Positions 6,111 through 22,180 of a stretch of 64,000 nt of DNA are shown one piece after another. A program made the position numbers and the translations under genes. A model generated the notes under the pieces. It had not been told where the DNA came from, made no database searches, and saw only the letters and a program-made list of their open reading frames with translations. How positions within the stretch are numbered: the stretch's first letter is position 1; each line of letters begins with the position of its first letter. The stretch covers positions 2,356,001-2,420,000 of the forward strand of contig NZ_CP080437.1 of NCBI RefSeq assembly GCF_021216655.1, read 5' to 3'. This stretch comes from Clavibacter michiganensis (lineage in GTDB: Bacteria; Actinomycetota; Actinomycetes; Actinomycetales; Microbacteriaceae).

Positions 6111-6138
6111 TCGTGTGTGGGTCCCCGTTCGCGCGTCC

Positions 6139-7140: not shown

Positions 7141-7338
7141 GTGAGCATCCTGTTCTCGCGAGTCATTGAACGCTGATCAGCGAACAAGGCACCATGGCGT
7201 TAACCGCCCCCGGAGCGAGCGAAGTGCACACATGACCAGTTGAGGACGATAGTCCACCCACCAGGAAGGCATTGCGTTGTAACGTCTCGCCAACCGCGAC
7301 CGTCGCGGCATGCGCACTTTATTAAAGGACTCTCCGCC

Positions 7339-8190
7339 ATGCCCCCACTCCTCCCTGCCCAACGTCATCACCTAGCCACGAGACCCTGGGCGGTTGCGCT
7401 CGTCGTCCTCATCGCTATCGGAGGCGTCGCTGCTGTGCCCGCATCCTCGGCTCACGCAGCAGGGCTACCCGCGCAGGGATCAACCATCTCGACCCTCCCG
7501 GCGTTTCCCGCACCCACATCAGTCAAGCCGCCACGAGCAACCCCATACGAAGTGCCCGCGGGTCAAACCGTCGACTACAACAACGCGGAACTCAACGGTT
7601 CGACGTCAGGGCGTGGCGAGTTCCAGCAACCGGTCATCCTCGTCCACCCGGGAGGAACGGTGAAGAACGTGATCATCGGCTCGCTCGCAGCCGACGGCAT
7701 CCACTGCGAAGCATCCTGCACCATCGAGAACATGTACTCGAGTCACGTCGGGGAGGACGCCGTGACCCTGCTCGACGGATCCCCGACGTCCTCCGTCGTC
7801 ACCATCCAGGGCGGAGGCGTCCAGCATGCATACGACAAGGTCGTCCAGATGGATGGCGCCGGCACTGTCCGGATCTCGCACTTCGCCGCGTCCGACATCG
7901 GATCTCTTGTGCGTTCCTGCGGTAACTGCCCGCACCAGTACCCGCGGCACATGGTGGTCAGCGACGTCTTCATCGACGGTGGCCGTTACAAGGTCGCCGG
8001 CGTCAACCAGAACTTCGGCGACACCGCCAAGCTCGACCACATCACCATCCGCGGAACACGCATGCAAGTCTGCGACAGGACCATCGGTGGCCGCGGCACG
8101 CCCGCCAAGGAGGTACCCGGAGGGAGCGGAGACCCCTACGCGGGGGTGTGCGACTTCAGCTACGCCACCATCCTGTTCGAGCACGGATGA
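7339..8190 (+). CDS. pelA: Secreted pectate lyase, polysaccharide lyase family 3
   Basis: 283 residues from the ATG at 7339, with aaagga about 9 bases upstream. The signal peptide is AVALVVLIAIGGVAAVPA through SSAHA. The PL3 core is recognisable: VDYNNAELNG, DGIHCEASCTIENMY, VGEDAVTLL, DKVVQMDGAGTVRISHFAAS, SLVRSCGNC, PRHMVVSDVF and VNQNFGDTAKLDHITI. The Cys-rich pattern is typical of the family. Known members cleave de-esterified pectin by beta-elimination with Ca2+. Clavibacter michiganensis carries pelA genes in its chp region, so the symbol is assigned by analogy. A resolvase-site-like half element lies at 7283-7295 and another copy begins 20 bp after the stop. Confidence 0.85.
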   Translation: MPPLLPAQRHHLATRPWAVALVVLIAIGGVAAVPASSAHAAGLPAQGSTISTLPAFPAPTSVKPPRATPYEVPAGQTVDYNNAELNGSTSGRGEFQQPVILVHPGGTVKNVIIGSLAADGIHCEASCTIENMYSSHVGEDAVTLLDGSPTSSVVTIQGGGVQHAYDKVVQMDGAGTVRISHFAASDIGSLVRSCGNCPHQYPRHMVVSDVFIDGGRYKVAGVNQNFGDTAKLDHITIRGTRMQVCDRTIGGRGTPAKEVPGGSGDPYAGVCDFSYATILFEHG

Positions 8191-8210
8191 GGTGGTGCGG
8201 TCCGTGACCC

Positions 8211-8240
8211 CCAAGCCTTGGCCTGCAAGACGTCTCGTGA
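8211..8240. repeat. Resolvase-site-like repeat copy 1
   Basis: Reads ccaagccttggcctgcaaga followed by cgtctcgtga. It matches copies at 10416, 21014, 22044 and 22152, sharing the order CAAC/GCC-TTGG-TTG-GAGACG-TCTCGTGA. It starts 20 bp past the pectate lyase stop. Confidence 0.6.
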
Positions 8241-8381
8241 ACGGCAGGAGCTCGCCACGAAGTACCGCGTCGTAGTGCGGCGACGGGATCCCGCGCCCCT
8301 CGAGCTGTCCGAGGCAGGGTTCCGTTCCTGGATGCGCCTGTGCAGCGCGACCCGATCGGACATCTCGAGTGGGGTATTGAG

Positions 8382-9016
8382 ATGGCGATTGATCTGAGCG
8401 CGGAGACACGCATAGAGCGATACGACCGGGGGCAGGCCGCCGCCGAGCGTGCCCAGCAGCGCCAGACGGAGGCTGCTCGGGGGAGGGGGGCTGCGCGGTG
8501 GGGCGGTGATGACTCCCCGGAGCACCGGGCGTTCCTGGAGCAGGAGTGCGAGATCCGGGCGGCGGCATCTCGGCGCGGGCCGTGCCGGTCACGCTCCCAG
8601 ACCAGCCCACGCCCCGTTCGTCGGACGCCGCCGCGGTGGCCGGGATAGACGAGCTCGTCACGGCCGCACTGCTCGGCGGCGGCCGCCGCCCGTCGGGCTT
8701 TCCGCCGGCCGTCCAGGATTTCCACGGCCGCGTGCTCCGACCGACGCGGATGCTCACCGGTCGCGGCTATGAGCTCGCCGCCGCCGACGCCGCCGCCGAC
8801 GCCGCCGCCGCCGACGCTGCTCGCGGAGCGGGCGACGTCGTGCTCACCATCGCGGCCGGCACCGGCCGCATCACGTTCGCTCCCCCGGCCGAACTGCCAG
8901 CCGATGCCATCTGGCAGACCGGCACCGACGGCGCCGAGCACGCCGACGACGTGACCGTGCACGAGTACATCGGTCAAGTCGAGACGGCTGCCCGCAAACT
9001 ACGTCGCATGCCTTGA
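8382..9016 (+). pseudogene. Hypothetical cytoplasmic protein split by a frameshift
   Basis: The first frame from the ATG at 8382 reads MAIDLSAETRIERYDRGQ through HRAFLEQECEIR. The continuation is in another frame from about 8550 (ISARAVPVTLPDQ to the stop at 9016) and ends with a 150-residue region containing an Ala/Asp repeat (AADAAADAAAADAA, 8770-8822). I infer one protein of about 210 residues broken near 8545. Alternatively the 3' part is an independent ORF. The family is not recognised; the style is that of actinobacterial plasmid cargo. Confidence 0.4.
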
Positions 9017-9035
9017 TCACGAAATCGATTACGCG

Positions 9036-9896
9036 TCAACGTGTCACGAGATTGTATTCTCTCTGCTCATGGAAAAACTGAGATAGCTTGATATACACCA
9101 TCGTGCTCTGCTCTGTGAGACGATGAGGAACTTGATCGGTCATTATTCCGTATAGCATACCCGTATCCGGGTTAAATACAGGCCCTCCGGAATCGCCCGG
9201 AAGCAAAAAGTCAGTTGTGGAAGATGCTGCTTGGTCTCCGCTTCGAGGGTCCCTGAAACCCGGTGGCCAAGCACGAACGGATAGATTCCGCCAGTTCACC
9301 TGTACACCAGTGGTGCTACCGCTTGTAGCAAAAGCTTCATTCAGCCCGGGGTTATCGTACCCGATTACGGGTTGGGCATATATGCTCCGCATTCTCAGCG
9401 ACGCGGTGAGCACCCGAGGAAGGGCGTTTGGCGTCCAGGTGGTCACCGGCAAGCAGTGGGGCGCGCCATGTGAAGAACTCCCACACGTGTACGACACGTG
9501 AACAATGGGATCAATTTTAATTAACGCTAGATCGACGTCATCAGATCTCCAATAAACCGTTCCGATGGGGGGAACATGACCGTGACGAGACTCGAGCTCG
9601 TTTCTAACAAATACCCTTTCCCCTATGCGCGCAACACAGTGATTAGCAGTCACTACGTATCTAGTCGCGCGCTCTTTTGCGAAGAACACTGCACTCCAAC
9701 TATTTTTTTGTACCACAGCACCTGCAGTGCAATCGCCGCCGAACTCGAATTCAAGCTGCGAACCCGCAATTACTGGTCGTGTCTGCCTGGCGCCCTCGGT
9801 AGCGAACGCGCTCCAAACCGTAGAACTGGCGGCCATTAGCCCAAGAGCGATGGGAATGACAATAAAGTAAATACCGCGAAAATGCGTTTTTGACAT
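9036..9896 (-). CDS. Chp/Pat-1-family secreted serine protease
   Basis: 286 residues from the ATG at 9896, chosen over upstream codons because the signal peptide (YFIVIPIALGLMAASSTVW through SAFA) follows at once. The chymotrypsin-fold domain has a complete triad: His86 (VVTANHCV), Asp122 (DDVDLALIKI) and Ser236 (LLPGDSGGPV). Paired Cys residues (GDCTAGA / CGSSSHGAPHC) are typical of Chp proteins. Members are exported virulence or host-recognition factors of Clavibacter; host targets are mostly unknown. The gene is visibly more AT-rich than its surroundings, suggesting separate acquisition. The sequence diverges clearly from the Chp proteins encoded at 13025 and 21180. Confidence 0.85.
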   Translation of the reverse strand: MSKTHFRGIYFIVIPIALGLMAASSTVWSAFATEGARQTRPVIAGSQLEFEFGGDCTAGAVVQKNSWSAVFFAKERATRYVVTANHCVARIGERVFVRNELESRHGHVPPIGTVYWRSDDVDLALIKIDPIVHVSYTCGSSSHGAPHCLPVTTWTPNALPRVLTASLRMRSIYAQPVIGYDNPGLNEAFATSGSTTGVQVNWRNLSVRAWPPGFRDPRSGDQAASSTTDFLLPGDSGGPVFNPDTGMLYGIMTDQVPHRLTEQSTMVYIKLSQFFHEQREYNLVTR

Positions 9897-10415
9897 TGAA
9901 TCAAAATCTCCATAATGACCCGATATGGATCTAAAGCGTATCAAATTGCGTATACAATGGTGCACTTGCCTCTAAAGCACACTAGACGAACGCTAAACTT
10001 ACAAAGGTCTTAATCCGAAGCGCTTTGTTTGTCCACAGACGGGGTGCTGAACGTCAGCGTGAAGACCGAAAACTACAGAGTGGTCGGGCGGAGCTCTCCG
10101 AGGAGTAGCCCTATCCGAGTCGATGCGGCACCGAGCGGCAGGGCGGGCGAGGGCGGGATCACGGGAGGTGCTGCAGCTGCTCGATCAGGCCCACAGGCGT
10201 ATGTGTTGTTTCCACGCTCGTCTCGCGGGACCTGGTCGTGTCTTCAAGATCCTGTGGACCATCGTTCTTCTGGTTCCGGTCCTGAGTGTTGTGTTCGGGA
10301 TGATCGTCAAGCCCGACGGATCTTTGCTGCCTCGAAGGCGACGCACACGGCCGCATTCGATGTGAGTCAAGGGGAACAGGTCAATAGGAAATGGCCCCCA
10401 TGTACTGTCCGCAGC
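9897..10415. other. AT-rich promoter region and unassigned sequence
   Basis: About 130 bp of AT-rich DNA upstream of the chp gene probably holds its promoter. Further on, a plus-strand frame around 10234-10365 encodes one membrane helix (FKILWTIVLLVPVLSVVFGM). It may be a remnant of a small membrane protein, but I cannot define a gene. Confidence 0.35.
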
Positions 10416-10450
10416 CTCTCGCAACCCTTGGCTTGTGAGACGTCTCGTGA
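10416..10450. repeat. Resolvase-site-like repeat copy 2, upstream of the resolvase remnant
   Basis: Inverted arms cctctcgcaaccc and ggcttgtgagacg around a TT centre, followed by tctcgtga. It lies 96 bp upstream of the resolvase reading frame, where res sites of serine resolvases normally sit. Confidence 0.65.
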
Positions 10451-10545
10451 GTCGAGGGGGAAGCGCTGACGATTCCCAGGGGGCGAATTGATGTACTTCA
10501 AGTAGGTGCTTGACTAAACCTACGCATCGTCGGTTGTGACACAGG

Positions 10546-11167
10546 TTGGTCGTCGTGAGGAAGCTCATCGGGTCTGCGCGGGTGTCGACGCGTCAGCAGG
10601 ACACTGACCGACAGGCGACGGACCTCCTCGCGTCCGGCGATCGGCGCAATGACCTCTACGTCGATCACGGCGTCTTGGGAGCTCGCGCGTCCCGGCCGGT
10701 GTTCGATGAGGCGTTGCGCGCGCGGCACGACGGCGACACCCTCGCGATCACGACTCTCGACCGGCTGGGGCCGATGAACGCACAACATGCTCGTACTAGT
10801 AAAGGACCTGCCGGGGAGGGGAGCATCGCTTCGGGTGTTAAATCTTGGCGGGGGAGATTAGGACACGGCGACCCCGATGGGGTCGATGGTGTTCACCGTC
10901 ATGGCGGCGCCGCCGCAGATAGAATTTCAGATCGAGCGGAAGCGGATCACGGACTCGCTGTCAAAGCGGCAGGCTGCGGGCGAGGACCTGGGCGGCCGGC
11001 GCCAGGCCTTCACCGACAGTCAAGTTGCGAACGCTGCCCGGCTGATTGATGCCGGCGAGCCGGCCACCCAGCTCGCGCGCGTCACGGGCATGTCCAGGGC
11101 GACGCTATACCCCCGACTTCCGGACATTCAGAAAGCCGAAGCAGCAGCCGCGATCCCGCGTTGGTAG
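10546..11167 (+). pseudogene. Serine recombinase (resolvase/invertase), disrupted
   Basis: The N-terminal frame reads RKLIGSARVSTRQQDTDRQ, which includes the catalytic Ser in RVST, and continues to ALRARHDGDTLAITTLDRLG. It breaks between about 10780 and 10870. It resumes in another frame with MVFTVMAAPPQIEFQIERKR, LSKRQAAGEDLGGRRQAF and a helix-turn-helix tail (LIDAGEPATQLARVTGMSRATLY). The order matches Tn3-type small serine resolvases, which cut and rejoin res sites. The central region is scrambled or deleted, so the enzyme should be inactive. A second, shorter remnant lies at 12121-12460. Confidence 0.8.
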
Positions 11168-11359
11168 GCCTCCGAGTATATCTCCATTAGCCCCCTTGCC
11201 CGGACCCTTCCGCCGGACCGGTCTTCTGAGATAGGCGGCTAACACGGATCGGAGGCGGGTGAGCGATGCTGGTAGACGTCCTCCGGACGTTCGTGCCCAT
11301 TAGGTAACCGTGACCTGTATGAGTACCCGAGGGGTCGGTCATTCGAGGAAAGAGGTGAG

Positions 11360-12067
11360 CTAGTTACCGCAATGGCTGTTTCCAAGGTCAGGGAACTTGA
11401 TGTAAAGGTACTTCAGATGCCGAGAATAGCAGCTTACTGCGACCGACCCGAGAGTGATGAATGCGACGGCGCCGATGCTTATGATGATCGCGGACGCGAT
11501 CAGCCCGAACGCGCCCGCGACGATGGACGCGATACCCACCGCTGTGCCGCCGCCGAGGAGGGCACCTCCGGTAGGGGCGGTAATCCTGGCGGTTACCCAA
11601 TGATGAAAAAAGTGCTTGAACTTGCGCCAGAACGATAGCTGCGTACCAGCCGCCGGGTTGGGGGCGGCGGTCGCTGCGGACTGCAGGATCACGGGTTGGC
11701 CCTGGTCCGTGTCGCTACCCAGCTGTCCCCAGCCGACAATGCTGCCAGTACTGCGGAGCTGCTCCACTTCGGCCGTCATTCCTTGAGGTAAGATGGCGCG
11801 GTCTAGAGTGGCGACTCCCTGCGCGTGTCCGGCGATACTTGCGTCGACGAGCTGGTCAACGCTGATGCGCCCGTCGACGACGTTCTGCAGAAACGAACCG
11901 TCACGCACAGCGTCGGCGATCGACTCTTCAGCGGCATTCGCTACCGGAGCCGCCGTCATGAGCGACCCGACGATGCTCAGTGTCGCAATCGTGGAGACTA
12001 TGGCCCGACTTCGACGACGGTAGTCCCGGGAAGTGAAAGGAAAGGGTGAGGAGACAGAAGGTTTCAT
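11360..12067 (-). CDS. Secreted hypothetical protein with a long hydrophobic C-terminal hairpin
   Basis: 235 residues. The signal peptide is AIVSTIATLSIVGSLMTAAP with cleavage near VANA-AE (about residue 46). The mature part has a soluble region (to about 150), a His/aromatic segment (FWRKFKHFFHHW) and then a glycine-rich, very hydrophobic stretch of about 45 residues (GGALLGGGTAVGIASIVAGA onward) that could form two membrane helices. It ends in a short Cys-containing tail. No family is recognised. The layout recalls secreted pore-forming or bacteriocin-like proteins, but that is only a structural analogy. It lies between two resolvase remnants among secreted virulence genes. Confidence 0.6.
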   Translation of the reverse strand: MKPSVSSPFPFTSRDYRRRSRAIVSTIATLSIVGSLMTAAPVANAAEESIADAVRDGSFLQNVVDGRISVDQLVDASIAGHAQGVATLDRAILPQGMTAEVEQLRSTGSIVGWGQLGSDTDQGQPVILQSAATAAPNPAAGTQLSFWRKFKHFFHHWVTARITAPTGGALLGGGTAVGIASIVAGAFGLIASAIIISIGAVAFITLGSVAVSCYSRHLKYLYIKFPDLGNSHCGN

Positions 12068-12120
12068 GGAACCATGCTCAATCGTCCGAATTGGATAAGT
12101 AAGCCCATAAGCTACGCGGC

Positions 12121-12460
12121 GGCCGCGAACCGTTGGCGGGTTTTACACAGGCTGCTTGCCCGGCACACCTCGCCTGTTCCGGCCGCCTGGTTCCACGGCT
12201 CAGCCCGGCCGGACGCCTACAGCGTCATCCGCGACACCGTCTCTACAGGCCTCTGCTCGATGCGGCCGACGTCGGCCTCCGGGTGCTCAACTTCGGCGGC
12301 GGCGGCGACGTCGGCACGTCCACGATCGTAGGCGCGATGGTACCTACCATAGTGGCCGCGCTCAGGCAAGCGAAGCGCGAGATCGAGACGACATGAGTCG
12401 TCGATTCCGTGGCCAAGCGTCGCGCGGTTGACCGCGACCTCGGCGGCCGTCGCCGAAGTT
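12121..12460 (+). pseudogene. Second serine resolvase fragment
   Basis: One frame reads LLDAADVGLRVLNFGGGGDV then GTSTIVGAMVPTIVAALRQA. Another frame after about 12400 reads VDSVAKRRAVDRDLGGRR. Both match the middle of a serine resolvase (GVGLRVLNxGxxDxxTSTPMG to KRRAAGxDLGGRR). The N-terminal catalytic part and the C-terminal DNA-binding part are missing or unrecognisable. Confidence 0.65.
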
Positions 12461-13011
12461 CGCGGACAGCCAGATGGTGGGCCCTTGACCTACAACCCGG
12501 TCGACAACAAATAGCGCAACGTCATCGAGCGCGGATTTGTCGGCTGAGGCAGTGGAGTGGCCGCGCGACCCGGTACGACAAGCTCGCGATCGTCTACTGC
12601 ACTCCCGTCGTCCTCAACGCCGTCATCGCCTAGATAGGCCGTCTAAGAGACATGCCTTAGCGCCAAAGTCTGAATACCGTAGCTCCCGTCGGCGGTATAG
12701 GGCAGCGGCGTCCCGCTCGAGAGGTGCACGTCCGCGATCTTAAAGTCAGTCAAGACGTCTACGCACGCCCAGGAGTCCGGTGCGACTTGGAAGCACGACG
12801 GAGAACGCTTCCCGCGGCGATCGCTCCCTGCGCGCCACGATCGGTCAGTCCGACGTCCCCGAAAGCAGCGAAGGTACCGGTATGGCAGGTCCGCGACGGC
12901 CGAACGGGTAGGCCTCACCGACGGGACAGGTCGGAGCTGTGCAGAGACTCGGAGCACACGCGCCGAAGGCAGATAGCTTGTCCGATGACGAATCGTCTAT
13001 CGAACAAACTT
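12461..13011. other. Unassigned sequence
   Basis: About 550 bp with several overlapping short ORFs on both strands and no recognisable protein. The last 100 bp probably hold the promoter of the chp gene that follows. Confidence 0.35.
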
Positions 13012-13024
13012 TGAGGAGGCCGCC

Positions 13025-13879
13025 GTGGCGGTTCAAGCATCGCACGCCGCACAAGCACGTCACACGCGCGGGGTTCTTCGCCGCCAAGCAGCTATCCTTC
13101 TTACTGTGGTGGCTGTTCTGACAGGAACGCTCAACTATGCCACGCCAGCGCAGGCAGTGACGATCCCTTCGAATCCAGACCGCATCCGCGAGCCGGTCGT
13201 AGCCGGCAGTAAGGTCAACACGCCCACCGGTTCGTGCACGGTCGGAGCCGTCCTCATTCCACGCAGCATCTATTCCCGCATCACGCCATACCAAAGAGCC
13301 ACGCGATGGTTCGTCATCGCGAAGCACTGTGCACGCATGTATGCCCCCATTCACGTCGGCACGTCAATACTCGGTGACGTCGTCTGGCAATCTGCAACGT
13401 CGGATATCGAACTCGTCCGCGTCTCGCCGCGACCAGACCCTTCGCCGCTCATTTGTGTGGCGCATCACCCCAAGAACCCGGCGGTTTGTAGCCCGTTTCA
13501 GACCTTCACGGCACGAGCGGCCGGTCAAGTATTTATGACAGCACGAGGTCACGTGGCGCGCCTCCCCGTCACCGGTTCGGGAGCGGCGGACGACGATCGG
13601 TTCTGCACCAGTGGATGGTCAACCGGAGTACAGTGCATCTGGCATGGTGTGAGTATTCCGCCGAGAACACCGCTTTCGTATGAGCACCTGGTTGCAGGTG
13701 AATCGGGCCAGCTTCTGAATCTCGATCCGGGCGACTCAGGCGGACCTGTAGTAAACTATTCTGCCGAATTGCTGGGGATTATCTCCAGCGTCCTGCCCCG
13801 CACGACGCTCATGTTATACACACCAATGTCGCAGGTGCTATCCGAGCTCCACGATTATCAATTGGCCTCAGGGGATTGA
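13025..13879 (+). CDS. Chp/Pat-1-family secreted serine protease
   Basis: 284 residues from a GTG at 13025, with gaggagg 7-13 bases upstream. An Arg-rich n-region leads to the signal peptide AAILLTVVAVLTGTLNYATP through AQA. The triad is complete: His101 (FVIAKHCARM), Asp127 (ATSDIELVRV) and Ser238 (DPGDSGGPVV). Cys pairs CTVGAV, CVAHHPKNPAVC and CTSGWSTGVQC match the Chp pattern. It resembles the protein encoded at 21180-22013 far more than that at 9036-9896, with the shared strings IVAGS/VVAGS, RITPYQRA, GDVVWQSA and YTPMSQVL. An extracellular virulence protease is inferred. Confidence 0.88.
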   Translation: MAVQASHAAQARHTRGVLRRQAAILLTVVAVLTGTLNYATPAQAVTIPSNPDRIREPVVAGSKVNTPTGSCTVGAVLIPRSIYSRITPYQRATRWFVIAKHCARMYAPIHVGTSILGDVVWQSATSDIELVRVSPRPDPSPLICVAHHPKNPAVCSPFQTFTARAAGQVFMTARGHVARLPVTGSGAADDDRFCTSGWSTGVQCIWHGVSIPPRTPLSYEHLVAGESGQLLNLDPGDSGGPVVNYSAELLGIISSVLPRTTLMLYTPMSQVLSELHDYQLASGD

Positions 13880-14266
13880 TCAGTTGTTATTGACGACGGG
13901 TGCATGGTGGGGACTGTAAGTGTTGGACGCAAACAACAAGCGGACGCTCACGCAGGTTCTTTAAACCTCCAGCAAGTAGAAGGTCACGTGAATGATCACC
14001 CTGTCTGAGATTAATGTCATCGTAAGCGCTGCGAGCACTAACATTATTAGATCATCGACGTCGCCGTAACTCATGCCGCGGCGCAGCAAGCGTGTCATCG
14101 GCATCCGGGAGCGCGCAAACCGCCGGTCTCTCGACGCGAGACAGCCTCCCTGTGGAGAGAAGAAGCGTGCTCCTCTCCACACCCGCGAAAGTTATCTGAC
14201 GCTGCGCAATTGCCCATCGGTGTGTGGTTCAGCCCCTCGCCTCCGGTATCACCAGAAGGAAGAACG
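13880..14266. other. Intergenic region with one possible 37-codon membrane peptide
   Basis: No assured gene. The minus strand from 14074 to 13961 encodes a 37-residue single-helix peptide (DDLIMLVLAALTMTLISDRV in the middle), which could be a tiny membrane protein or chance. The promoter of the next gene is presumably here. Confidence 0.25.
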
Positions 14267-14725: not shown

Positions 14726-14786
14726 GACGGCTATGGTCTGGAGCGGCCAGTCTCGCTCGATGGACCAAACCGCGACATAACGTTCG

Positions 14787-15791
14787 TTAGCGGTGCGCGA
14801 GTCGAAGCTGTGAGAAGGGCAATAAATCGCCTTCAACAACTGCGCGCGTCACCCGTCCTCGCGAGGATCTGCCCTCGCCTGCGACCCGCGTCGATGTGGC
14901 CGGATCCAAACGCCCCTCGGTGGTGGTTCCGTCGAGGACGGGATCGAGGAATGAAGAAACGAGCTCCACCGTATCCTCGATCCGAGGGCGGTGATCCGCC
15001 AGCGGCGTCGTCGCGGCCATGCGTCGATATGCGGCGCCCCAGTGCTCGGGCACGGTGAGGTGATCGACCGGTTCGAGGGAGCGAAGCAGGAACTCCTGGC
15101 TGACGGCGACCCGGAGCTCGGCCGCGTCGACGGTCTCGAAGGACGCGATCATGGCGAGGTCGACCAGGTCCTTCTCCCGTGACGACGGCCGGCCTTCTGG
15201 GCCGTACACCTGGATCGTTGCGCAGAGCTTGTCGCTGACCTGGTCGACGAGCGGGTACAGCAGGTAGTCGTACGTGCGGAACTTGAGCTGCGTCAGCCGG
15301 TTCGCCGGCGCTCGACGCTCGGGTGCTGCCGAGGGCATGTGGCCTACGGCCAGGTCGATCCCGATCTTGCCGTGCGAGGTCACTCCGAGGAACGCGTCGA
15401 ATGTGACCCGGCATCCGCTCGTGTACGGCTGGTTCTCGCCGGTGAGCAGCTCTGTCCGCGATTTGTAGACGAAGCGGAAGTGATCGCCGAGATCCCGTGA
15501 TGCGCATTCGACGAGCTCGTCGACGGCGGCGTCGAGCGCGCCTTCCGTTGCCGCCAGGTCGATGTCGAGCGTCGAACGGCTGCGCGGCATGCGCGCCAGC
15601 ATGCCCGTCCCTCCCTTCAGCACGAACATGGGCTCGTCGTCGGCGAACACGCGGCAGAGGAAGCGATCGAACATCGTCTGCTTGATGAGATCGCCCACGG
15701 AGGGCGATGCCCCTTGCGCGGCCTTCTGCGCGGCCGTCTTGATCGCGGCCCTGGCTGCGGGACCCGAGCTGTAGCCCAGCAGGTCAGGCAC
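14787..15791 (-). CDS. AbiEii/AbiGii-type nucleotidyltransferase toxin
   Basis: 334 residues from a GTG at 15791 that overlaps the stop of the AbiEi gene (15784), showing translational coupling. The nucleotidyltransferase signature is present: FVLKGGTGM (about 57-64) followed by STLDIDLAA with the metal-binding DxD at 76-78, and a conserved core to about residue 280 (TQLKFRTYDYLLYPLVDQVS, then EKDLVDLAMI). AbiEii toxins transfer nucleotides to RNA or protein targets and arrest growth. With AbiEi it forms a type IV toxin-antitoxin or phage-abortive pair. The last 40 residues are Arg/Thr-rich and atypical, possibly a shifted tail. Confidence 0.85.
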   Translation of the reverse strand: MPDLLGYSSGPAARAAIKTAAQKAAQGASPSVGDLIKQTMFDRFLCRVFADDEPMFVLKGGTGMLARMPRSRSTLDIDLAATEGALDAAVDELVECASRDLGDHFRFVYKSRTELLTGENQPYTSGCRVTFDAFLGVTSHGKIGIDLAVGHMPSAAPERRAPANRLTQLKFRTYDYLLYPLVDQVSDKLCATIQVYGPEGRPSSREKDLVDLAMIASFETVDAAELRVAVSQEFLLRSLEPVDHLTVPEHWGAAYRRMAATTPLADHRPRIEDTVELVSSFLDPVLDGTTTEGRLDPATSTRVAGEGRSSRGRVTRAVVEGDLLPFSQLRLAHR

Positions 15792-16788
15792 CGGAGTCCC
15801 TCGTCGCGCTCTCGCGCGCTCTGCTCTGTTCGGAGCGATCGCTGGTGCGTTGCGTTCGCGCGGGGATGCCGCGGATCTCGCTGAGGAGCATCTCCGAAAT
15901 GTAGCCAGTCTGCGGCCTGAGCGCACGGGCGACCGACTCGCTGACGATCTCCGAGACGCCGATCCGTCCGATCGCCGCGGATGCGATCCGAGAGATGTCC
16001 GGCAGGACGCCCGACGTCTCAAGGATCGAGCGGGAGAGCGACTTCGCGATCTCCTCGCCGATCCTGACCTGCACCGCATTGAATGCCGTCGCGTTGCCTC
16101 GGGATGCACCCTCGAGAGCCCGCCGGAGCCGAGAGGCGGCGTCCACTCCCCCGAGCTCGAGGAGCCGGTGGAGGAACCCGGCTCCATCATCGGCTGGCCG
16201 GCCGGGGCGCCGGGCGGCCGGCTCGAGAAGATCGGCGAGGCGGTCAAGGTCGATGGACTCAGCGCGGACAGCATCGGCGAGCACGTCCGCGACCAGGCTG
16301 AGGTCCTGGTCCTCGAGGACGAGGTCGGCGATGGTGCGTTCGACGGTCGTCGTCGGGAGCCCGGCGACGACCGTCACGTCATGTGGGTCGAGCTGATCCT
16401 GCCGGTAGCGGACGTCGCTCCGTTGCGACTGGCGGCGCTTCGAGGTGATGAAGTCGTAGGGCTCCGGCTGCAGGTCGCCATAGCCGTGGAGGTGAGCCGC
16501 CGTGCTACCGCCGACCACAGCGCGAGGGTCACCCGATGTGATGCGTTCCTCTGCCGTCCTACGTGAGTCGGTGCTGATCCATGCTGCTCGGATCGGGTCC
16601 CACTCCCCCGGCGCGCTGCCGGCATCGCGGTACACGCCGTGTGCCATCCGCTCGAGTAGGCCGCGCTGAGCCAGTCGTGACAGCTGCAGGCGGGACACCC
16701 CGACGGCCTCGGCCTGGGCTGTCGTGACCATGCCCCACTGCCCTGCGGTGAGTTCTGCAAGGAGAGGAAGGGCATCGAGGGACTTCAT
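15784..16788 (-). CDS. AbiEi-type antitoxin and transcriptional repressor
   Basis: About 334 residues if started at the ATG at 16788. The open frame reaches 16818, but that region overlaps a palindromic operator. The N-terminal winged-helix domain (AELTAGQWGMVTTAQAEAVG, LSRLAQRGLLERMAHGVYRD) and the middle domain (VVGGSTAAHLHGYGDLQPEP, then LPTTTVERTIADLV) are typical of type IV antitoxin AbiEi. It should repress its own promoter and counteract the toxin encoded by the overlapping downstream gene. The C-terminal third (residues about 220-330) has no counterpart that I recognise. Confidence 0.85.
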   Translation of the reverse strand: MKSLDALPLLAELTAGQWGMVTTAQAEAVGVSRLQLSRLAQRGLLERMAHGVYRDAGSAPGEWDPIRAAWISTDSRRTAEERITSGDPRAVVGGSTAAHLHGYGDLQPEPYDFITSKRRQSQRSDVRYRQDQLDPHDVTVVAGLPTTTVERTIADLVLEDQDLSLVADVLADAVRAESIDLDRLADLLEPAARRPGRPADDGAGFLHRLLELGGVDAASRLRRALEGASRGNATAFNAVQVRIGEEIAKSLSRSILETSGVLPDISRIASAAIGRIGVSEIVSESVARALRPQTGYISEMLLSEIRGIPARTQRTSDRSEQSRARESATRDSGA

Positions 16789-16796
16789 GTGAGGAT

Positions 16797-16817
16797 TGTA
16801 TCTCTCTGGGAGATACA
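16797..16817. promoter_or_regulatory. Palindromic operator in front of abiEi
   Basis: tgtatctc and gagataca form a perfect 8-bp inverted repeat separated by 5 bases, ending 9 bp upstream of the AbiEi ATG. AbiEi family members are known to autorepress through inverted repeats at this position. Confidence 0.6.
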
Positions 16818-17135
16818 TTCCAAGCGGTTTCTCGTATCGGGAGCCGCAACCGCTCTGGCTCTGAGGCGCCTCCCTGCCCCGGAGGCGGCCTGCGCTGGCT
16901 GTCGTCAGAGCCCGCCTGTGAGCCTCATCGACAGGGTCCTCAACATCGCATCCACGCGAGCGCGGTTCTCTCGAGCTCGGTGGGAAGCGGCGATCGACTG
17001 AAGACTGTGCGGCCTCGATCTCAAAGGGCGGCGTCGGCCGTGGAGCTTCCGCCCGCCGCCGAGGCGGGAAGATTGGCGCCTCGGCTGGGGTGGCCTTCGT
17101 GCAGGGCTTGGACTAAATGGTGGTACGTCCTCGTC

Positions 17136-17444
17136 ATGTGCCCGTGGACGCGGTACTACCTCAGCCCCGAGCGCGACGTCGTGCTCGCGCTGTTCGGGAC
17201 CCGCGCCGGGTGGCACATCGGGGACCACATCGCGGCGGCACCGGGAACGGGCCGTGGCCGTGCGCTACGCATCCTCCTGCTGCCCGAGCTGCTGCCCGTC
17301 GCGGACGCCCGGCGCGTGACGATCCACGCGACGGCCGCGTCACCCGAACTGGCCGCGCTCTACATGGCCGAGCTCCCGGGCCTGGTCGACGTCGGCGGAG
17401 GCATGTTCCGCGGCCGTCGTCTCCGCCGGCCCCCGGCTACCTGA
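17136..17444 (+). CDS. Hypothetical protein
   Basis: 102 residues from the ATG at 17136 (MCPWTRYYLSPERDVVLALF). Sequence such as RILLLPELLPVADARRVTIH and ASPELAALYMAELPGLVDVG looks coding and is Ala/Leu-rich. No domain is recognised. The 3' end overlaps the convergent minus-strand gene by about 100 bp, so one of the two may be shorter than shown. Confidence 0.4.
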   Translation: MCPWTRYYLSPERDVVLALFGTRAGWHIGDHIAAAPGTGRGRALRILLLPELLPVADARRVTIHATAASPELAALYMAELPGLVDVGGGMFRGRRLRRPPAT

Positions 17445-17747
17445 GCGCGAGCGCGCCGCGAACGCGATCAGCTCGGCGCTGTGCTGCACCATCCACGCCA
17501 CGGCCGTGTCCAGCGAGGGCTCGCGGCGGATCCAGATGCGCTGGCCCTGGTCGTTGCGGGCGTCGGCGTAAACGTCGAAGGTGAACGGGTCTCCGAGCTC
17601 CGCCCGGTGCCGGATCACGTACCCGAGCACAGGACGGTCTTCGACCTGGATCCGCCAGTAGCCGGCCTGGAGGTGCGCCCACGGGTGCTGTCCTGTGCTG
17701 CGCACGAGGCTGTCGATGCCGTCGAGCTTGCTCTTGACCCTGCTCAC
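17340..17747 (-). CDS. Hypothetical plasmid-type protein
   Basis: 135 residues from a GTG at 17747 with ggaggag about 9 bases upstream. The frame is open to 17996, but that part lies in a tandem duplication. The core reads GYWRIQVEDRPVLGYVIRHR, FTFDVYADARNDQGQRIWIR and TAVAWMVQHSAELIAFAARS. A compact alpha/beta protein is likely; no family is recognised. Confidence 0.5.
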   Translation of the reverse strand: MSRVKSKLDGIDSLVRSTGQHPWAHLQAGYWRIQVEDRPVLGYVIRHRAELGDPFTFDVYADARNDQGQRIWIRREPSLDTAVAWMVQHSAELIAFAARSRSGSRGPAETTAAEHASADVDQARELGHVERGQFG

Positions 17748-17782
17748 CGGGTGCTCTCCTCCGTCGATGCGATCGAGTGGGA

Positions 17783-17955
17783 GCGTCCGGCCGCGCTCAT
17801 CGACGAGCGTACGAAGGGCCACCGACGGATGGACCATCTTCGGGTAGGTGGTGAGCGGCGGCACGTTGTCCGCGTCCGGCCGCGCTCGTCGACGCGCGCA
17901 GGAGCGACCACCGACGGGTGGACGAGCTGCCGTTCGACAGTGAGCGGCATCGCGC
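17783..17955. repeat. Imperfect 89-bp tandem duplication
   Basis: Two adjacent copies (17783-17871 and 17872-17955) both start gcgtccggccgcgctc, contain an accgacgg-tggac string and end in gtgagcggc. On the minus strand both encode a VHPSV...VDERGR peptide in different frames. Confidence 0.6.
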
Positions 17956-18186
17956 CGCTGTCCGAGCGCGCGGAGCACCCGCGGCGGCGCGCTCACATGG
18001 CCGCCTCGCGCTCGGGATGCGCCGGCGGAGGCTGCCGAGCGAGACCGGATGATGCCCCCCGAAGTGGGGATCTACCTGTGGACAACGGGGGTGGACTTTT
18101 CCCCACCCTGGGGATAACACGCCCACAACATGTTGTGACTAGGACAGCGTCGGTCGTACTACATATAGTGAGCGAAGACATGAGAC

Positions 18187-18225
18187 GACCCCGCAAGCTG
18201 CGGGCGAGCCGAGCGTTGCGGGGTC
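18187..18225. other. Hairpin in the leader of the YjzC-family gene
   Basis: A 10-bp perfect stem, gaccccgcaa / ttgcggggtc, with a 19-base loop, about 100 bp upstream of the next start codon. No T-run follows, so a leader structure or protein-binding site is as likely as a terminator. Confidence 0.4.
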
Positions 18226-18326
18226 GAAGTACCGGTTGGCAGGCCAGTGCGTCGAACCTACATCGTCGGGCGCGACGGAAGCGCCCATGGCTCACATCGA
18301 GCTCGGTCAGTAAGGAACTGATCACC

Positions 18327-18503
18327 ATGGCCTCATCGCCGCTGACGTCCGGAGACCCCACGCCGCGCTCCGGGCAGTACGAGATCCGTGGACCCCGTGG
18401 GGGCCACACCGGCGAGGAGCGGACGTCGACGCGGGGCAACCCGCTGCCGCCCACTCCGAAGCCGGGGCAGACGTTCACGCTCGTCGACCCCACGAAGCAC
18501 TGA
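18327..18503 (+). CDS. YjzC-family small protein
   Basis: 58 residues (MASSPLTSGDPTPRSGQYEI onward). GQYEIRGPRGGHTGEERTS and PLPPTPKPGQTFTLVDPTKH match the conserved pattern of the short YjzC-like family found in firmicutes and actinobacteria, whose role is unknown. It starts at an ATG after a modest purine-rich site. Confidence 0.7.
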   Translation: MASSPLTSGDPTPRSGQYEIRGPRGGHTGEERTSTRGNPLPPTPKPGQTFTLVDPTKH

Positions 18504-18528
18504 GGGCCGACGGGCGCAGACGAAGTAC

Positions 18529-18651
18529 GTGAAGGGCTGGATCTTCATCCCCTGCCCTCACTGTCGCCACGAGCACGGGCCGTTCTCGCAGGTCACCACC
18601 GGTGACATGCAGTGCGCCCGCTGCAAGACCTGGTTCGAGCTCGTCGCCTAG
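18529..18651 (+). CDS. Tiny zinc-ribbon protein
   Basis: 40 residues from a GTG at 18529: WIFIPCPHCRHEHGPFS and MQCARCKTWFELV. The two CxxC knuckles are 22 residues apart and predict one zinc-ribbon. The start codon is uncertain because no clear ribosome binding site is visible. Confidence 0.5.
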   Translation: MKGWIFIPCPHCRHEHGPFSQVTTGDMQCARCKTWFELVA

Positions 18652-18675
18652 GTCGCTCCCCGCCGCAGGGCGGTC

Positions 18676-18694
18676 GGCGCCCCTCGTGGGCGCC
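18676..18694 (+). terminator. Short GC hairpin after the zinc-ribbon gene
   Basis: ggcgccc / gggcgcc with a 5-base loop, 25 bp past the stop. There is no T-tract, so activity is uncertain. Confidence 0.45.
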
Positions 18695-18844
18695 GGCTGC
18701 TCTCGGCAGTGGGCAGCCGCTCAGATGTGGCGCTCTCCCGGTTCGACCGTACGGACGAGCGCCGGCATGAGGCTGGGCGGCCGCGGCGAGCTCTCTTCGA
18801 GCGGGGGACGTATGCCGTAGACGACCATCTGGGGTCCAATGCAC

Positions 18845-18878
18845 GAGCGGCCGGGACCCTGGTGGGTCCCGGCCGCTC
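18845..18878 (-). terminator. Strong hairpin downstream of the 18893-19156 gene
   Basis: A perfect 15-bp stem (gagcggccgggaccc / gggtcccggccgctc) with a tggt loop, 15 bp beyond the minus-strand stop. Confidence 0.7.
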
Positions 18879-18892
18879 CTGTTCGTACTCGC

Positions 18893-19156
18893 CTAGACGG
18901 CGGTGCTTCGTGCGCCGCGGCGCTCTCGGGTGCGTCGTCGCTCCGGGTTGGCGTTGACGCGGGCGAGCGCGGCAACCAGCTCGGGGTCGTTCATGAACTC
19001 GCGCTCGGCTGGGGTCATGATGATGGCCGGCTCGAAGATGATCGTGCCGTTCGGCTCCTCGCGGACGAGGTACTGGTCGAACTTCGCCATGGATCCAAGG
19101 CTTGCGCGCTTGCGTGCGTCGATCTGGACGAAGGTGGGGGCGATGGTGGAGGTCAT
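18893..19156 (-). CDS. Small hypothetical (antitoxin-like) protein
   Basis: 87 residues: MTSTIAPTFVQIDARKRASL, then GTIIFEPAIIMTPAEREFMN, then a basic tail (RVNANPERRRTRERRGARS). The N-terminus with a short beta-strand and RKR before a TIIFEPA strand recalls swapped-hairpin or antitoxin-type DNA-binding proteins, but this is only a resemblance. Upstream is agaagagagacgagca. No toxin partner is adjacent. Confidence 0.5.
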   Translation of the reverse strand: MTSTIAPTFVQIDARKRASLGSMAKFDQYLVREEPNGTIIFEPAIIMTPAEREFMNDPELVAALARVNANPERRRTRERRGARSTAV

Positions 19157-19452
19157 TGCTCGTCTCTCTTCTTTCCGTCTACGTGGGTGCGGAAAGGCCG
19201 TGCCCTGATGAGGGGCAGGTTTTCTTATATTTCTTTGGGGTGGCTAGCGCAGACCCATGTCTGGACCTACAACTGCGCGGGCCTCCAGCCGGGGCCGGGG
19301 GGCGCTCTCATTGCTGACCGTGAGGGGTATCAGCCTCACGCTTCGTGATCCGTGGATCACTGAGTAAGGACGCGAACACACGTGGGTGAAACCCAACAGG
19401 GGCACAGCCCACCTGTGCACAAATGGGCCAAGGGGTGCGCGCTGGCTGGATC

Positions 19453-19734
19453 ATGAACCTGGCATACGCAGACGAAGCAGCAGATCAGCTCGATCACTAC
19501 GACGAGCGCGACACGCTGCTCGCTGACGCGTTCGATCGCGTGATCGGGGAGCTCGAGGCTGCGCCGCCCAACGGCGCCGTGCAGCTGCGGCAGACGTACC
19601 TCAAGCCCCCGGGGGCGTAAGCCGTGGCCGTGATGGTCCCGGGTCGTCCCCAGCGGTACATGCTCCTGTGGGAGTTCGAGGAGCCCAACACGGCGTTCAT
19701 CAAGTACGCCGGCCGAGGCTTGGCGGCCCTGTGA
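19453..19734 (+). pseudogene. RelE-like small protein with an in-frame TAA
   Basis: From the ATG at 19453: MNLAYADEAADQLDHYDERD through QLRQTYLKPPGA. After a TAA (19618-19620) the same frame continues AVAVMVPGRPQRYMLLWEFE and FIKYAGRGLAAL to a stop at 19734. The coding character is the same on both sides. An N-terminal helix pair followed by a late beta-hairpin is RelE/ParE-like, which is a weak resemblance. The TAA is best read as a nonsense mutation in one 93-codon gene. Confidence 0.5.
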
Positions 19735-19940
19735 CGTCCGCGAGCGATGCCGCGCTGCACGCAGCGCCCACTAGACCACCGGGGCTCGCCCCCGGCCACC
19801 GACTGCCCTCATCTGCGGGTCGTCGGTCTCTTAAAGCGAAGAACCCCACCGAGGTCGTCGGAGGGGAGCTCAGCATCCTTGTGAGATGGGATCAGCCGAG
19901 CGTACATCGCTACGCAGGTGAGGAAGGAGGTAGAGCGTCC

Positions 19941-20081
19941 ATGAGTAAGAAATCCTCCAGCAAGGTGACCAGCCCGTCGATCGCCAGCAAGGCGTCCGGC
20001 ATCCTTCGCGACGGCCGCACGTCGGCCAACTCGAAGAGCATCGCCGCCAGCGCCCTCGCTCAGGCCAAGGGCGGCAAGTAG
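19941..20081 (+). CDS. Small basic conserved hypothetical protein
   Basis: 46 residues, MSKKSSSKVTSPSIASKASG through SIAASALAQAKGGK. It is preceded by a strong aaggagg at about 19922-19928 and followed by a terminator. Ser/Lys/Ala-rich proteins of this type are common as small plasmid or phage genes; the function is unknown. Confidence 0.6.
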   Translation: MSKKSSSKVTSPSIASKASGILRDGRTSANSKSIAASALAQAKGGK

Positions 20082-20128
20082 GCCCGCCGCCTCATCGGAC
20101 GAACGCGACGACGACCCGCCGCATTCTC

Positions 20129-20154
20129 GCCCCCTCCCCTTCCGGGGAGGGGGC
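20129..20154 (+). terminator. GC-rich hairpin after the small basic protein gene
   Basis: gccccctcccc / ggggagggggc, a perfect 11-bp stem with a 4-base loop, about 50 bp past the stop. Confidence 0.6.
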
Positions 20155-20693
20155 GCCGCTGTATCCACGGTGCGACTACTGCCCGGCGGCCGTTCGCGGG
20201 ACGTCCCGGAACCTTTAGGACGTGGGTCGTCCTCGCAGCGGCCGGCTACGTGCCGACCTTCGCCGCGGCCGTGGCGTGCGCGTTCGTCGCCGGCGTGCGC
20301 GACGTCGGCGGCCGTGATCCTCGCCGGCGGGCTCCTGGTCCCGTCGACCATCCGCCGCCGTCCGGCCCACCGATGACCTGTGAGAGCTGCAACCGCCGCC
20401 AGGACTGATGGCGCCAGTTCCCGGGCGCCACAGCAGCGCAGCTATGCCTAGGAGCAGATCGTCACAGAACCACAACATGTGGGGTTCTACAACAGGCGCG
20501 CCACGAACATGTCGTACCCCGCCCGTAGAATTAGCGGCGGAACGTAGTACGACCCCGCACCCGTCGGGGAAGCCGAGTGGTACGGGGCCGATTTACCAGT
20601 TTCCAGGCCGGTTCATCGACCTTAACACCGTCGCAAGGGGCGCTACCCGAGTGCCTTCGGCCCAAGTGATGCTCGTCCAGATTGGAACATCTC

Positions 20694-20957
20694 ATGGCAG
20701 ACCGTGCCGTACGACAGACCGGCAAGGACCGCGACGGCGACATCACGTCGCTCGCCGACCGGGGTAGCTCGTGGTCACCTGTGTCGAAGGCTCAGGCGAT
20801 CTACGACATCGAGAATCGACTGCACACGTACCACGTGCCGTGGAAGACCGCCGGGCGCACGGAGATCCGCGTCGTGCCGGATCCGAAGGGTAAGTACCTT
20901 CGGACCGACTCAGACAACACGACGAGGAACAACCTGCGCGACCTGCCCGACGCATGA
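20694..20957 (+). CDS. DUF3892-family protein
   Basis: 87 residues from the ATG at 20694. KDRDGDITSLADRGSSWSPV, KAQAIYDIENRLHTYHV, RTEIRVVPDPKGKYLRTDSD and RNNLRDLPD are the conserved blocks of DUF3892, a short domain of unknown function found in many bacteria. It is followed by its own terminator and shows no operon link to the chp gene downstream. Confidence 0.75.
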   Translation: MADRAVRQTGKDRDGDITSLADRGSSWSPVSKAQAIYDIENRLHTYHVPWKTAGRTEIRVVPDPKGKYLRTDSDNTTRNNLRDLPDA

Positions 20958-20966
20958 TCCGGTGAA

Positions 20967-20999
20967 GGCGGGAGGGGAGGCCATGTCGCCCCTCCCGCC
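20967..20999 (+). terminator. Hairpin after the DUF3892 gene
   Basis: ggcgggagggg / cccctcccgcc, a perfect 11-bp stem with an 11-base loop, 10 bp past the stop. Confidence 0.6.
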
Positions 21000-21013
21000 G
21001 CGGGCGTTTGTCA

Positions 21014-21041
21014 CGTCCCACAACCCTTGGGTTGCGAGACG
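21014..21041. repeat. Resolvase-site-like repeat copy 3, upstream of a chp gene
   Basis: Near-perfect 28-bp palindrome: arms cgtcccacaaccct and tgggttgcgagacg. It lies 138 bp upstream of the chp start codon. Confidence 0.65.
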
Positions 21042-21179
21042 GGCCCACTTCGTGCTGGCGCCGATCGCTCGGTGATGCTCTGTCGCGTCTCTGTGTAGAG
21101 ACAGCTCCTCGAGCGGGCGCGCCAACCTACGGTCGCGTCGACCGCCCCATGGCGGACAGCCCACGCTACGGAGGAACTC

Positions 21180-22013
21180 TTGCCTGCTCGCCATCACACC
21201 ATCCAGCGCAAGCGCTCAATAGGGGCTGCTCTTCTCGCTCTGCTGGCGACCCTTGTCTTGACCTGCATGGCGGGAACACCCGCCTACGCGAACGGACTCA
21301 GCAACCCGGACCGCGGAAACTTCCCCATCATCGCCGGTTCCGAAGTCGGCGTTCCGAATGGCTACTGCAGCGTCGGAGCCGTGCTCGTTCCCAGCAGCAT
21401 CTTCCAGCGGATCACCCCATATCAGCGCGCTGTTCGCTACCTCGTCCTCGCCAAGCACTGCGCTCCGCTCAACTCGCCCATCTACTTCGCGCAGCAGGAC
21501 ATCGGAGACGTCGTCTGGCAGTCAGCAGCATCTGACATCGAGCTGGTCCGCGTATCGCCCTCGCGCGACAACATGACCCTGCACTGCGCCGGCCACTCCA
21601 CCCCCGCAACATGCAGCCCGATCCAGACCTTCACCCCTCGAGCCAACGGCCAAGTCTTCATGACCGCACCGCCCTCACCGATCGTCGGGCGGCGAGCGAT
21701 CGCAGGGACGGGTATTCCGTCGGCCACGGGCACGTTCTGCACGAGCGGGCACGTCACCGGCGTCATCTGCGACTTCCAGCCCACGAGCCTGCCTGTCGGG
21801 GTCCTCAGGGCGTATGAGCACCTTGCGGCTGGACAGTCAGCCGCCGTGGGAGCGCTGCGGCCCGGCGACTCCGGCGGCCCCGTCGTCAGCAAGGACAGGC
21901 GGCTGCTTGGCATCATCTCCGGCGACGTGCCGAACACTCACTTCCTTGTCTACACCCCGATGGCGCAGGTCCTCCACGAACTGTCGAGCTACAAGCTCGC
22001 ACCCGCCAACTGA
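21180..22013 (+). CDS. Chp/Pat-1-family secreted serine protease
   Basis: 277 residues from a TTG at 21180 with ggagga 5-10 bases upstream. The signal peptide is GAALLALLATLVLTCMAGTP through AYA. The complete triad is His93 (LVLAKHCAPL), Asp119 (AASDIELVRV) and Ser231 (RPGDSGGPVV). It is close to the protein encoded at 13025-13879, sharing RITPYQRAV, GDVVWQSAASDIELVRVSP, QTFTPRANGQVFMTA and YTPMAQVLHELSSYKLA. GC content matches the surroundings, unlike the 9036 copy. It is flanked by near-palindromic repeats at 21014-21041 and 22044-22070. An exported virulence protease is inferred. Confidence 0.9.
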   Translation: MPARHHTIQRKRSIGAALLALLATLVLTCMAGTPAYANGLSNPDRGNFPIIAGSEVGVPNGYCSVGAVLVPSSIFQRITPYQRAVRYLVLAKHCAPLNSPIYFAQQDIGDVVWQSAASDIELVRVSPSRDNMTLHCAGHSTPATCSPIQTFTPRANGQVFMTAPPSPIVGRRAIAGTGIPSATGTFCTSGHVTGVICDFQPTSLPVGVLRAYEHLAAGQSAAVGALRPGDSGGPVVSKDRRLLGIISGDVPNTHFLVYTPMAQVLHELSSYKLAPAN

Positions 22014-22043
22014 CCCCACGTCGTTCCTCGGCTCGACACCAGG

Positions 22044-22080
22044 CGTCCCGCAAGCCTGGGTTGTGGGACGTCCCGCGAGC
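22044..22080. repeat. Resolvase-site-like repeat copy 4, downstream of a chp gene
   Basis: Arms cgtcccgcaagcc and gggttgtgggacg, followed by tcccgcgagc. It starts 31 bp after the chp stop. Confidence 0.65.
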
Positions 22081-22151
22081 GGTCGGAGCTCGCCGCGGAG
22101 CACCGCGGACGCGAGCGTCCCGCAGCGATGGCCCGCAAGGGTCTACACGGC

Positions 22152-22180
22152 GCGCCGGGCCAACCGTCGGTTGCGGGACG
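22152..22180. repeat. Resolvase-site-like repeat copy 5 (weaker)
   Basis: gcgccgggccaacc-gt-cggttgcgggacg. The right arm fits the other copies well, the left arm only partly. It lies 108 bp from copy 4, a spacing like sub-sites of one res region. Confidence 0.5.

What the first reader, a model, noticed from the sequence alone, without database searches (positions are those of the whole stretch)
7283..22180. Resolvase-site-like palindromes around the pectate lyase and a chp gene
Five near-palindromic elements (8211, 10416, 21014, 22044, 22152) plus a half-element (7283-7295, cgtctcgccaacc) share arms of the type cgtcycgcaaccc / gggttgygrgacg around a short centre, several followed by TCTCGTGA or TCCCGCGA. 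One lies 96 bp upstream of a dead serine resolvase, where res sites belong. Others bracket single virulence genes: 7283 and 8211 around the pectate lyase, 21014 and 22044 around an intact chp gene (31 bp past its stop). This could be an unreported resolvase-driven, cassette-like way of moving, deleting or amplifying virulence genes.
Basis: partly seen in the sequence, partly recalled or inferred. Interest (0 to 1): 0.78.

Follow-up and report, generated by a model that had tools for sequence, protein, structure and literature searches.

The report
Resolvase-site gene cassettes in Clavibacter
Short palindromes around single genes in a plant-pathogen gene island are the crossover sites of a DNA resolvase, and comparison with related plasmids shows that whole genes have been swapped at exactly these sites, like cassettes.

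Summary
The palindrome is crossover site I (13+2+13 bp) of the res site of a Micrococcales plasmid resolvase family: 7 of 8 loci with resolvase relatives carry it 149-186 bp before the start codon. Window 10415 belongs to the broken resolvase; 22044 and 22152 are sub-sites of one res; 21014 is an orphan site I without sub-sites II/III; 8205-8232 is decayed; 20202 is an extra decayed copy; the 7283 half-element is not a boundary.

The cassette idea is supported. Ends of aligned blocks between 23 related loci fall on 37 of 43 sites (shift mean 3.6, maximum 13 in 5000). Cassettes align centre to centre between plasmids and species. Two decayed borders lay where alignment predicted them. Empty and filled platforms exist. 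In 11 of 11 arrays the full res is the last site.

Best model: integron-like shuffling by a serine resolvase, site-I-only cassettes stacked upstream of a full res. Shown: exchange borders at site I. Inferred: the recombinase, circular intermediates, present activity. I found no intact close resolvase in this genome. Cargo is often protease or pectate lyase, not only. My searches found no printed description.

The parts
6056..8218 (+). pectate lyase block (pel CDS about 7240-8190), ending in a site I on its right; no site found at its left end
   Evidence: collinear with C. capsici L032/L036/L037 up to 8232; Pectate_lyase 181.6 bits; no site near 6056
8205..8232 (+). decayed site I 14 bp after the pel stop; the next ~37 bp resemble the start of the 22044 res by eye, II/III not recognisable
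   Evidence: PWM 23.3; nhmmer E 1.2
10415..10442 (+). site I of the res of the broken resolvase
   Evidence: PWM 39.3
10443..10545 (+). rest of that res (II/III region)
   Evidence: nhmmer E 2.5e-10
10546..11167 (+). broken serine resolvase, catalytic and HTH pieces in different frames
   Evidence: Pfam Resolvase 49 bits and HTH_7 30 bits
20202..20229 (+). decayed orphan site I, left border of cassette d
   Evidence: PWM 17.5; same place relative to gene and hairpin as the decayed site of L069
20216..21027 (+). cassette d (DUF3892 gene)
   Evidence: most of it (20293-20988) matches L071 at 83.8%, ending 24 bp before a site there; annotation of H41
21014..21041 (+). orphan site I, left border of the chp cassette
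   Evidence: PWM 41.1, no II/III match
21028..22057 (+). chp cassette (secreted-type trypsin-like protease, CDS 21180-22013)
   Evidence: aligns end to end with the C. capsici cassette, 88% over 1033 bp; Trypsin 22 bits
22044..22070 (+). site I of a full res, centre reduced to one base
   Evidence: nhmmer E 2.5e-5; right flank 95% like pCM2 over 250 bp

Best explanation
The palindromes are crossover sites (site I) of res sites of a small serine resolvase family carried on Micrococcales plasmids. In Clavibacter plasmids and in this island they are borders of exchangeable gene cassettes. A full res (I+II+III), with or without its resolvase gene, is the platform. Cassettes of about 0.8-2.2 kb, often one gene, begin with the right half of a site I and end with the left half of the next, and are stacked upstream of the platform in one orientation. 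Strand exchange at the central 2 bp (mostly TT) moves or deletes cassettes. In the window the chp cassette, with a decayed cassette d before it, sits on a platform that holds other DNA in relatives. Shown: site identity by homology, block borders at site I, half-sites that travel with the adjoining segment, empty and filled platforms, order of sites. Inferred: that this resolvase family did it, that circular cassettes are the intermediates, that a lone site I can be a partner.
For: Site I in the res position of resolvase genes, 7 of 8 loci. Block ends at 37 of 43 sites, shift mean 3.6, maximum 13 in 5000. Near-identical capsici plasmids diverge at the site I after pel. Cassettes chp, b and a align centre to centre, c also. 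Cassette a keeps its own unusual half-sites in three contexts. Two decayed borders found where predicted. Empty/filled pairs L072/L064 and L069/L071. Right halves follow right flanks: 1.18 mismatches against 3.20 in the background, 0 of 5000 permutations. Full res last in 11 of 11 arrays.
Against: No experiment and no excised circle seen. Tn3-type recombination is built on I, II and III (passages of PMC9943657), yet orphan sites have no II/III. The window's resolvase is broken, that of pCI1 has lost its C-terminal part, and the C2 resolvase of this genome is only 38-40% identical. Left-half linkage fails over all 18 left-flank pairs (3.44 and 3.44) and appears only after leaving out 7 pairs with two decayed pel sites (2.09 and 3.36). 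One of 6 orphan pairs goes the other way. Lone orphan sites outside arrays exist (L068, L073, L075, L071:15958), and one neighbour is inverted (L076:10205). The pel block has no left site in the window or in capsici. Shared ancestry makes the pair counts dependent.
Confidence: 0.72

Rival explanations
1. Ordinary resolvase shuffling between complete res sites (plasmid fusion and resolution), as described for Tn3-family and plasmid res sites; orphan sites are former full sites that lost II/III.
For: Known process (PMC9501444 passages). Full res sites join many different left neighbours: 189 site pairs have similar right flanks only. It needs no new property of the resolvase.
Against: Exchange between full sites leaves II/III on every product. 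Orphan sites in arrays have no II/III match, and cassette a starts at its half-site with the same leader in three contexts, so the loss would have to be old and repeated in unrelated cassettes.
Confidence: 0.18
2. Homologous recombination or break repair at short palindromes, without the recombinase.
For: The sites are repeated palindromes; the genome has no intact close resolvase that I found.
Against: 28 bp is short for homologous exchange (recalled). Halves on the two sides of the centre follow different flanks. Of 20 neighbouring pairs within 3.2 kb, 19 have the same orientation.
Confidence: 0.05
3. The palindromes are ends of a transposon or of miniature elements that carry passenger genes.
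For: Repeated palindromes flank genes.
Against: They recur in the res position of resolvase genes; neighbouring copies are direct, not inverted, in 19 of 20 pairs; one site is shared by two neighbours. I did not search for target duplications.
Confidence: 0.03
4. They are only transcription terminators or operators.
For: They lie 14 bp after the pel stop and 30 bp after the chp stop; the leader after 21014 is also found before a metallopeptidase gene (L035).
Against: None of the 9 terminator-like matches in 7000-22500 lies on a site; res position and exchange borders are not explained.
Confidence: 0.02

Closest known systems
Shuffling function of resolvases (Kholodii 2001, seen only as cited in PMC9501444)
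   Same: Serine resolvase, exchange between res sites, mosaic plasmids
   Different: There complete res sites are recombined (as described in the passage read); here many borders are site I alone and single-gene cassettes stack upstream of one full res
pdif/dif modules of Acinetobacter (PMC12907356, passages)
   Same: Gene modules bounded by short recombination sites, in a row, on plasmids and chromosome
   Different: XerC/XerD tyrosine recombinases, C/D and D/C sites; here serine-resolvase sites of 13-2-13, mostly one orientation
Integrons (recalled)
   Same: Platform site plus array of cassettes, each with its own recombination site, one orientation
   Different: Tyrosine integrase and attC hairpins there; here a serine resolvase and a double-stranded palindrome, cassettes upstream of the platform
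Tn3/gamma-delta resolvase and res
   Same: Protein family, three sub-sites upstream of the gene
   Different: No Tn3 transposase among the annotated features of the resolvase-bearing plasmid stretches fetched; orphan site I copies serve as borders

Membership tests
Tn3-type serine resolvase / res | Resolvase catalytic domain with relatives among solved gamma-delta and Tn3 resolvases | tested here: met
   pCI1 relative: Resolvase 124.6 bits; 1gdt, 2gm4, 5cy1 at E 1e-20 to 4e-23. The window copy is broken
Tn3-type serine resolvase / res | res with crossover site I and accessory arms upstream of the gene | tested here: met
   7 of 8 loci; window 10415 and 22044
Tn3-type serine resolvase / res | Every recombining site carries II/III | tested here: not met
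   orphan sites in all 11 arrays
Tn3-type serine resolvase / res | Cleavage at the 2-bp centre of site I | not testable with these tools
   only indirect: halves follow their flanks
pdif modules | XerC/XerD sites of C/D and D/C type, alternating | tested here: not met
   19 of 20 neighbouring pairs in one orientation; sites 13-2-13; the 11-6-11 form of dif is recalled
Integron | Tyrosine integrase gene at the array | tested here: not met
   no integrase among the annotated products of L029, L032, L035, L036, L037; product names only, no profile search there
Integron | attC sites folded as single strands | not tested
   -
Integron | Cassettes in one orientation at one platform site | tested here: met
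   full res last in 11 of 11 arrays

The most novel reading that the evidence does not exclude
A working, integron-like cassette-capture system run by a small serine resolvase: circular cassettes with a lone site I insert at the site I of a full res. It would be widespread in Microbacteriaceae, including a row of nine related site clusters in 9.6 kb of another genus (L099), and would supply secreted protease and pectate lyase genes to Clavibacter.
Probability: 0.38. Interest if true: 0.9.

Novelty: new variant of a known kind. Interest (0 to 1): 0.76.

Why it matters
It would explain how Clavibacter species swap single protease and pectate lyase genes between plasmids and island. It would add a serine-recombinase route to gene-cassette systems; the ones I know of (integrons, pdif modules; recalled) use tyrosine recombinases. 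It also makes an old question testable: whether a resolvase that normally works through accessory sites can use a lone crossover site.

Tried and rejected
Half-site 7283 as left border of pel: rejected, it is internal to a collinear block. A left border for pel near 6056: no site there in the window or capsici. Terminator role: no match on the sites. The plasmid resolvase of G149 as enzyme of the G149 array: the best site-like score near it is 5.9. A simple empty-site comparison of the window with pCM2: left flanks differ too much. A strain-level comparison inside C. michiganensis chromosomes was not possible; the one same-species copy of the island seen (pVQ28-1, two stretches compared) is collinear.
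Papers: 0 hold Clavibacter + res site + resolvase; 0 hold gene cassettes + serine recombinase + resolvase + res site + integron-like; others (5 papers; 1; 18, 15 listed; 1; 3; 7) showed nothing like it in titles and abstract starts. I read passages only, of PMC9501444, PMC4133298, PMC4059874, PMC9943657 and PMC12907356. The library lacks most subscription journals, so absence in print is not shown.
Full report
WHAT THE MOTIF IS. The palindrome is CGTCYCGCAACCC-TT-GGGTTGYGRGACG. The catalytic piece of the broken resolvase (window 10558-10788) has relatives on 699 plasmid records, 30 of them at 60% identity or more, on Clavibacter, Curtobacterium, Arthrobacter, Kocuria and related plasmids. Of 8 loci read upstream of a relative (L023-L030), 7 hold the 28-bp palindrome 149-186 bp before the start codon, followed by further arms (sub-sites II and III); L030 has none. 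The pCI1 relative matches solved gamma-delta and Tn3 resolvases. So the motif is site I of a res site. A profile of the II/III region of those 7 loci, run on the right flanks of 47 sites, separates full res from orphan site I. In the window 10415 and 22044 are full, 21014 and 20202 are orphans, 8205 is too decayed to score (E 1.2).

WHERE IT IS. In the own genome the profile finds 7 distinct places at E<=1: 5 within 30 kb of the chromosome-size contig C1, one on C3, one weak on C2; of 18 genus genomes 12 match (150 candidates scored per genome, so counts are lower bounds). With a 24-bp pattern and up to 2 mismatches, 12 of 398 family genomes match and no backward control does. With the profile and stricter filters 22 of 249 match at E<=0.001.

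EXCHANGE AT SITE I. (1) C. capsici pCM2 of PF008 (L036) and of 1207 (L037) are 99.4% identical over 18.4 kb up to the end of the site I that follows pel; no match then until 21710/21998. Left of TT the halves differ at 1 of 13 bases, right of it at 3. PF008 has an annotated peptidase and a DUF2283/DUF4258 pair there; 1207 has chp (annotated as trypsin-like), as has pCM1 of PF008. (2) In the window pel and chp lie 13 kb apart, each at a site I; in C. capsici they are neighbours joined by one site I. (3) Centre to centre, the window's chp cassette (1029 bp) matches capsici (1036 bp) at 88%; cassette b of L071 (1533 bp) matches capsici (1527 bp) at 91%; cassette a (832-834 bp) occurs three times at 97-99% on two contigs of G398. 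Cassette a always starts with the odd half GT[C/T]TTGTGAGACG and ends with AGTCCCGCA[A/T]GCC, while the outer halves vary. (4) The end of b in capsici had no site at my threshold; alignment put it at 20366 and the best position in 2.7 kb is 20352-20379 (9.9, next -2.9). The left end of cassette c in L069 was likewise the best position in 2.5 kb (10.7, next -1.7); for c in L071 no such site was found. (5) Empty and filled platforms: L072 has X-res, L064 has X-site-cassette-res; L069 has c-res, L071 has the end of c, then site-a-site-b-res. (6) The 22044 platform with 3 kb to its right is found in L069 (88.6%) and in pCM2 (97%) with other DNA on the left: d and chp in the window, c in L069, other DNA in pCM2.

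STATISTICS. Over 23 loci (422,843 bp; the partly duplicate L032/L036/L037 included, 22044 added by hand) blastn gave 734 distinct block ends, of which 38 lie on a site; 37 of 43 sites have an end within 10 bp, against a mean of 3.6 and a maximum of 13 in 5000 circular shifts. Half-sites, 41 sites (left out: the six of L023-L028, window 22044 and 20202, and weak or lone copies L035:9764, L071:15958, L076:10205, L081): in 28 pairs with strongly similar right flanks and unrelated left flanks, right halves differ by 1.18 bases and left by 3.89 (background 3.20 and 4.24; 23 of 28 pairs in this direction, 3 against, 2 ties); 0 of 5000 permutations is as low. In 18 pairs with similar left flanks both halves differ by 3.44; without 7 pairs that involve the two decayed pel sites, 11 remain with 2.09 left and 3.36 right, 0 of 5000. 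Among 6 orphan-orphan pairs one goes against the rule (c in L036 and L069, 7 mismatches on the right; both decayed). Shared ancestry makes the pairs dependent.

ORDER. Of 20 neighbouring site pairs within 3.2 kb, four decayed sites included, 19 have the same orientation; L076:10205 is the exception. I count 11 arrays of orphan(s) plus full res: window 20202-22044, L032, L036, L035, two in L070 (4.4 kb apart), L071, L064, L069, L076, L077; the full res is last in 11 of 11. Two full calls are weak by nhmmer (L070:7259, E 0.017; L069, E 0.022), but their right flanks match other full sites. If its place were random the chance would be about 1 in 20,000, overstated because arrays share cassettes. 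Left out: window 8205/10415, L065 (two full sites 5.7 kb apart), and lone orphans L068, L073, L075 and L071:15958.

CARGO. Pectate lyase and chp (over Pfam cut-offs); a reprolysin-like protein and a TetR regulator (over cut-offs) and two serine proteases (below) in pCI3; b, trypsin-like below cut-off; a MerR-type regulator below cut-off; cassette a without a match; DUF2283/DUF4258 genes. Secretion is judged by eye from the N-termini, not computed.

HOW IT WORKS. Shown: borders at site I, half-sites that follow their flanks, orientation and order. Inferred: a resolvase of this family brings together a cassette's site I and the site I of a full res; exchange at the 2-bp centre inserts the cassette upstream of the platform, and the reverse deletes it. 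Tn3 resolvase recombines inside a complex built on I, II and III (passages of PMC9943657), and wild-type Tn3-type resolvases hardly act on site I alone (recalled), so the lone site I is the weak step: it may be rare, need a host factor, or use another recombinase. Full-length resolvases (203 aa) lie beside the arrays of L076 and L077; the one of pCI1 has lost its C-terminal part; the window's is broken. PF00239 has 5 matches in the own genome: two pieces of the broken gene, C2 (38-40% identical to relatives), C3 (37%) and C1:1325923 (not compared). In this genome the cassettes may thus be fixed unless a plasmid brings an enzyme.

KNOWN OR NEW. The nearest printed ideas are resolvase shuffling of res sites and pdif modules (PMC9501444 and PMC12907356, passages). 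My searches found no description of site-I-only cassettes. I file it as a new variant of a known kind. While checking I lowered the probability of the boldest reading slightly, because c in L071 lacks a visible left site and lone orphans exist.

Noticed in passing
L099 (G149:C1:1120000-1139000), 7114-16698; L100 (G245): Another genus of the family has a row of nine related site clusters (mostly AT centre, one strand but for the two end copies) around small ORFs, many without Pfam match, also GNAT, tautomerase and a WapI-like immunity protein. The left part resembles res site II by eye. The only PF00239 match of G149 is on C2 and has no such site upstream, so the enzyme is unknown.
   Followed up: partly
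L032:9697-12697, L036:24361-27361: A 3-kb unit with a recombinase, a Mu-transposase-like and an AAA gene (Tn402-like by recall) occurs in both capsici plasmids at 99.97%; in pCM1 (L032) it lies just upstream of another recombinase gene.
   Followed up: no
window 6000-11600 and 19500-24500: Both stretches are present, collinear and 98.8-99.7% identical, in a 131.6-kb circular record called plasmid pVQ28-1 of C. michiganensis VQ28, although the window's copy is in a 3.27-Mb contig.
   Followed up: no
window 8318-8996: Relic of a plasmid replication gene (78-80% to rep regions of Clavibacter plasmids) right after the pel block.
   Followed up: no
G398 contigs C2 and C3: Site matches occur twice at constant offsets (about 60,885 and 48,669 bp), so these contigs look like more than one turn of a circular plasmid.
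   Followed up: no
window 21042-21197 and L035:7842-8002: The leader after the orphan site, with an inverted repeat GTCTCTgtgtAGAGAC in the window copy, is shared by chp and a metallopeptidase gene; it may be a common promoter or regulator site.
   Followed up: no
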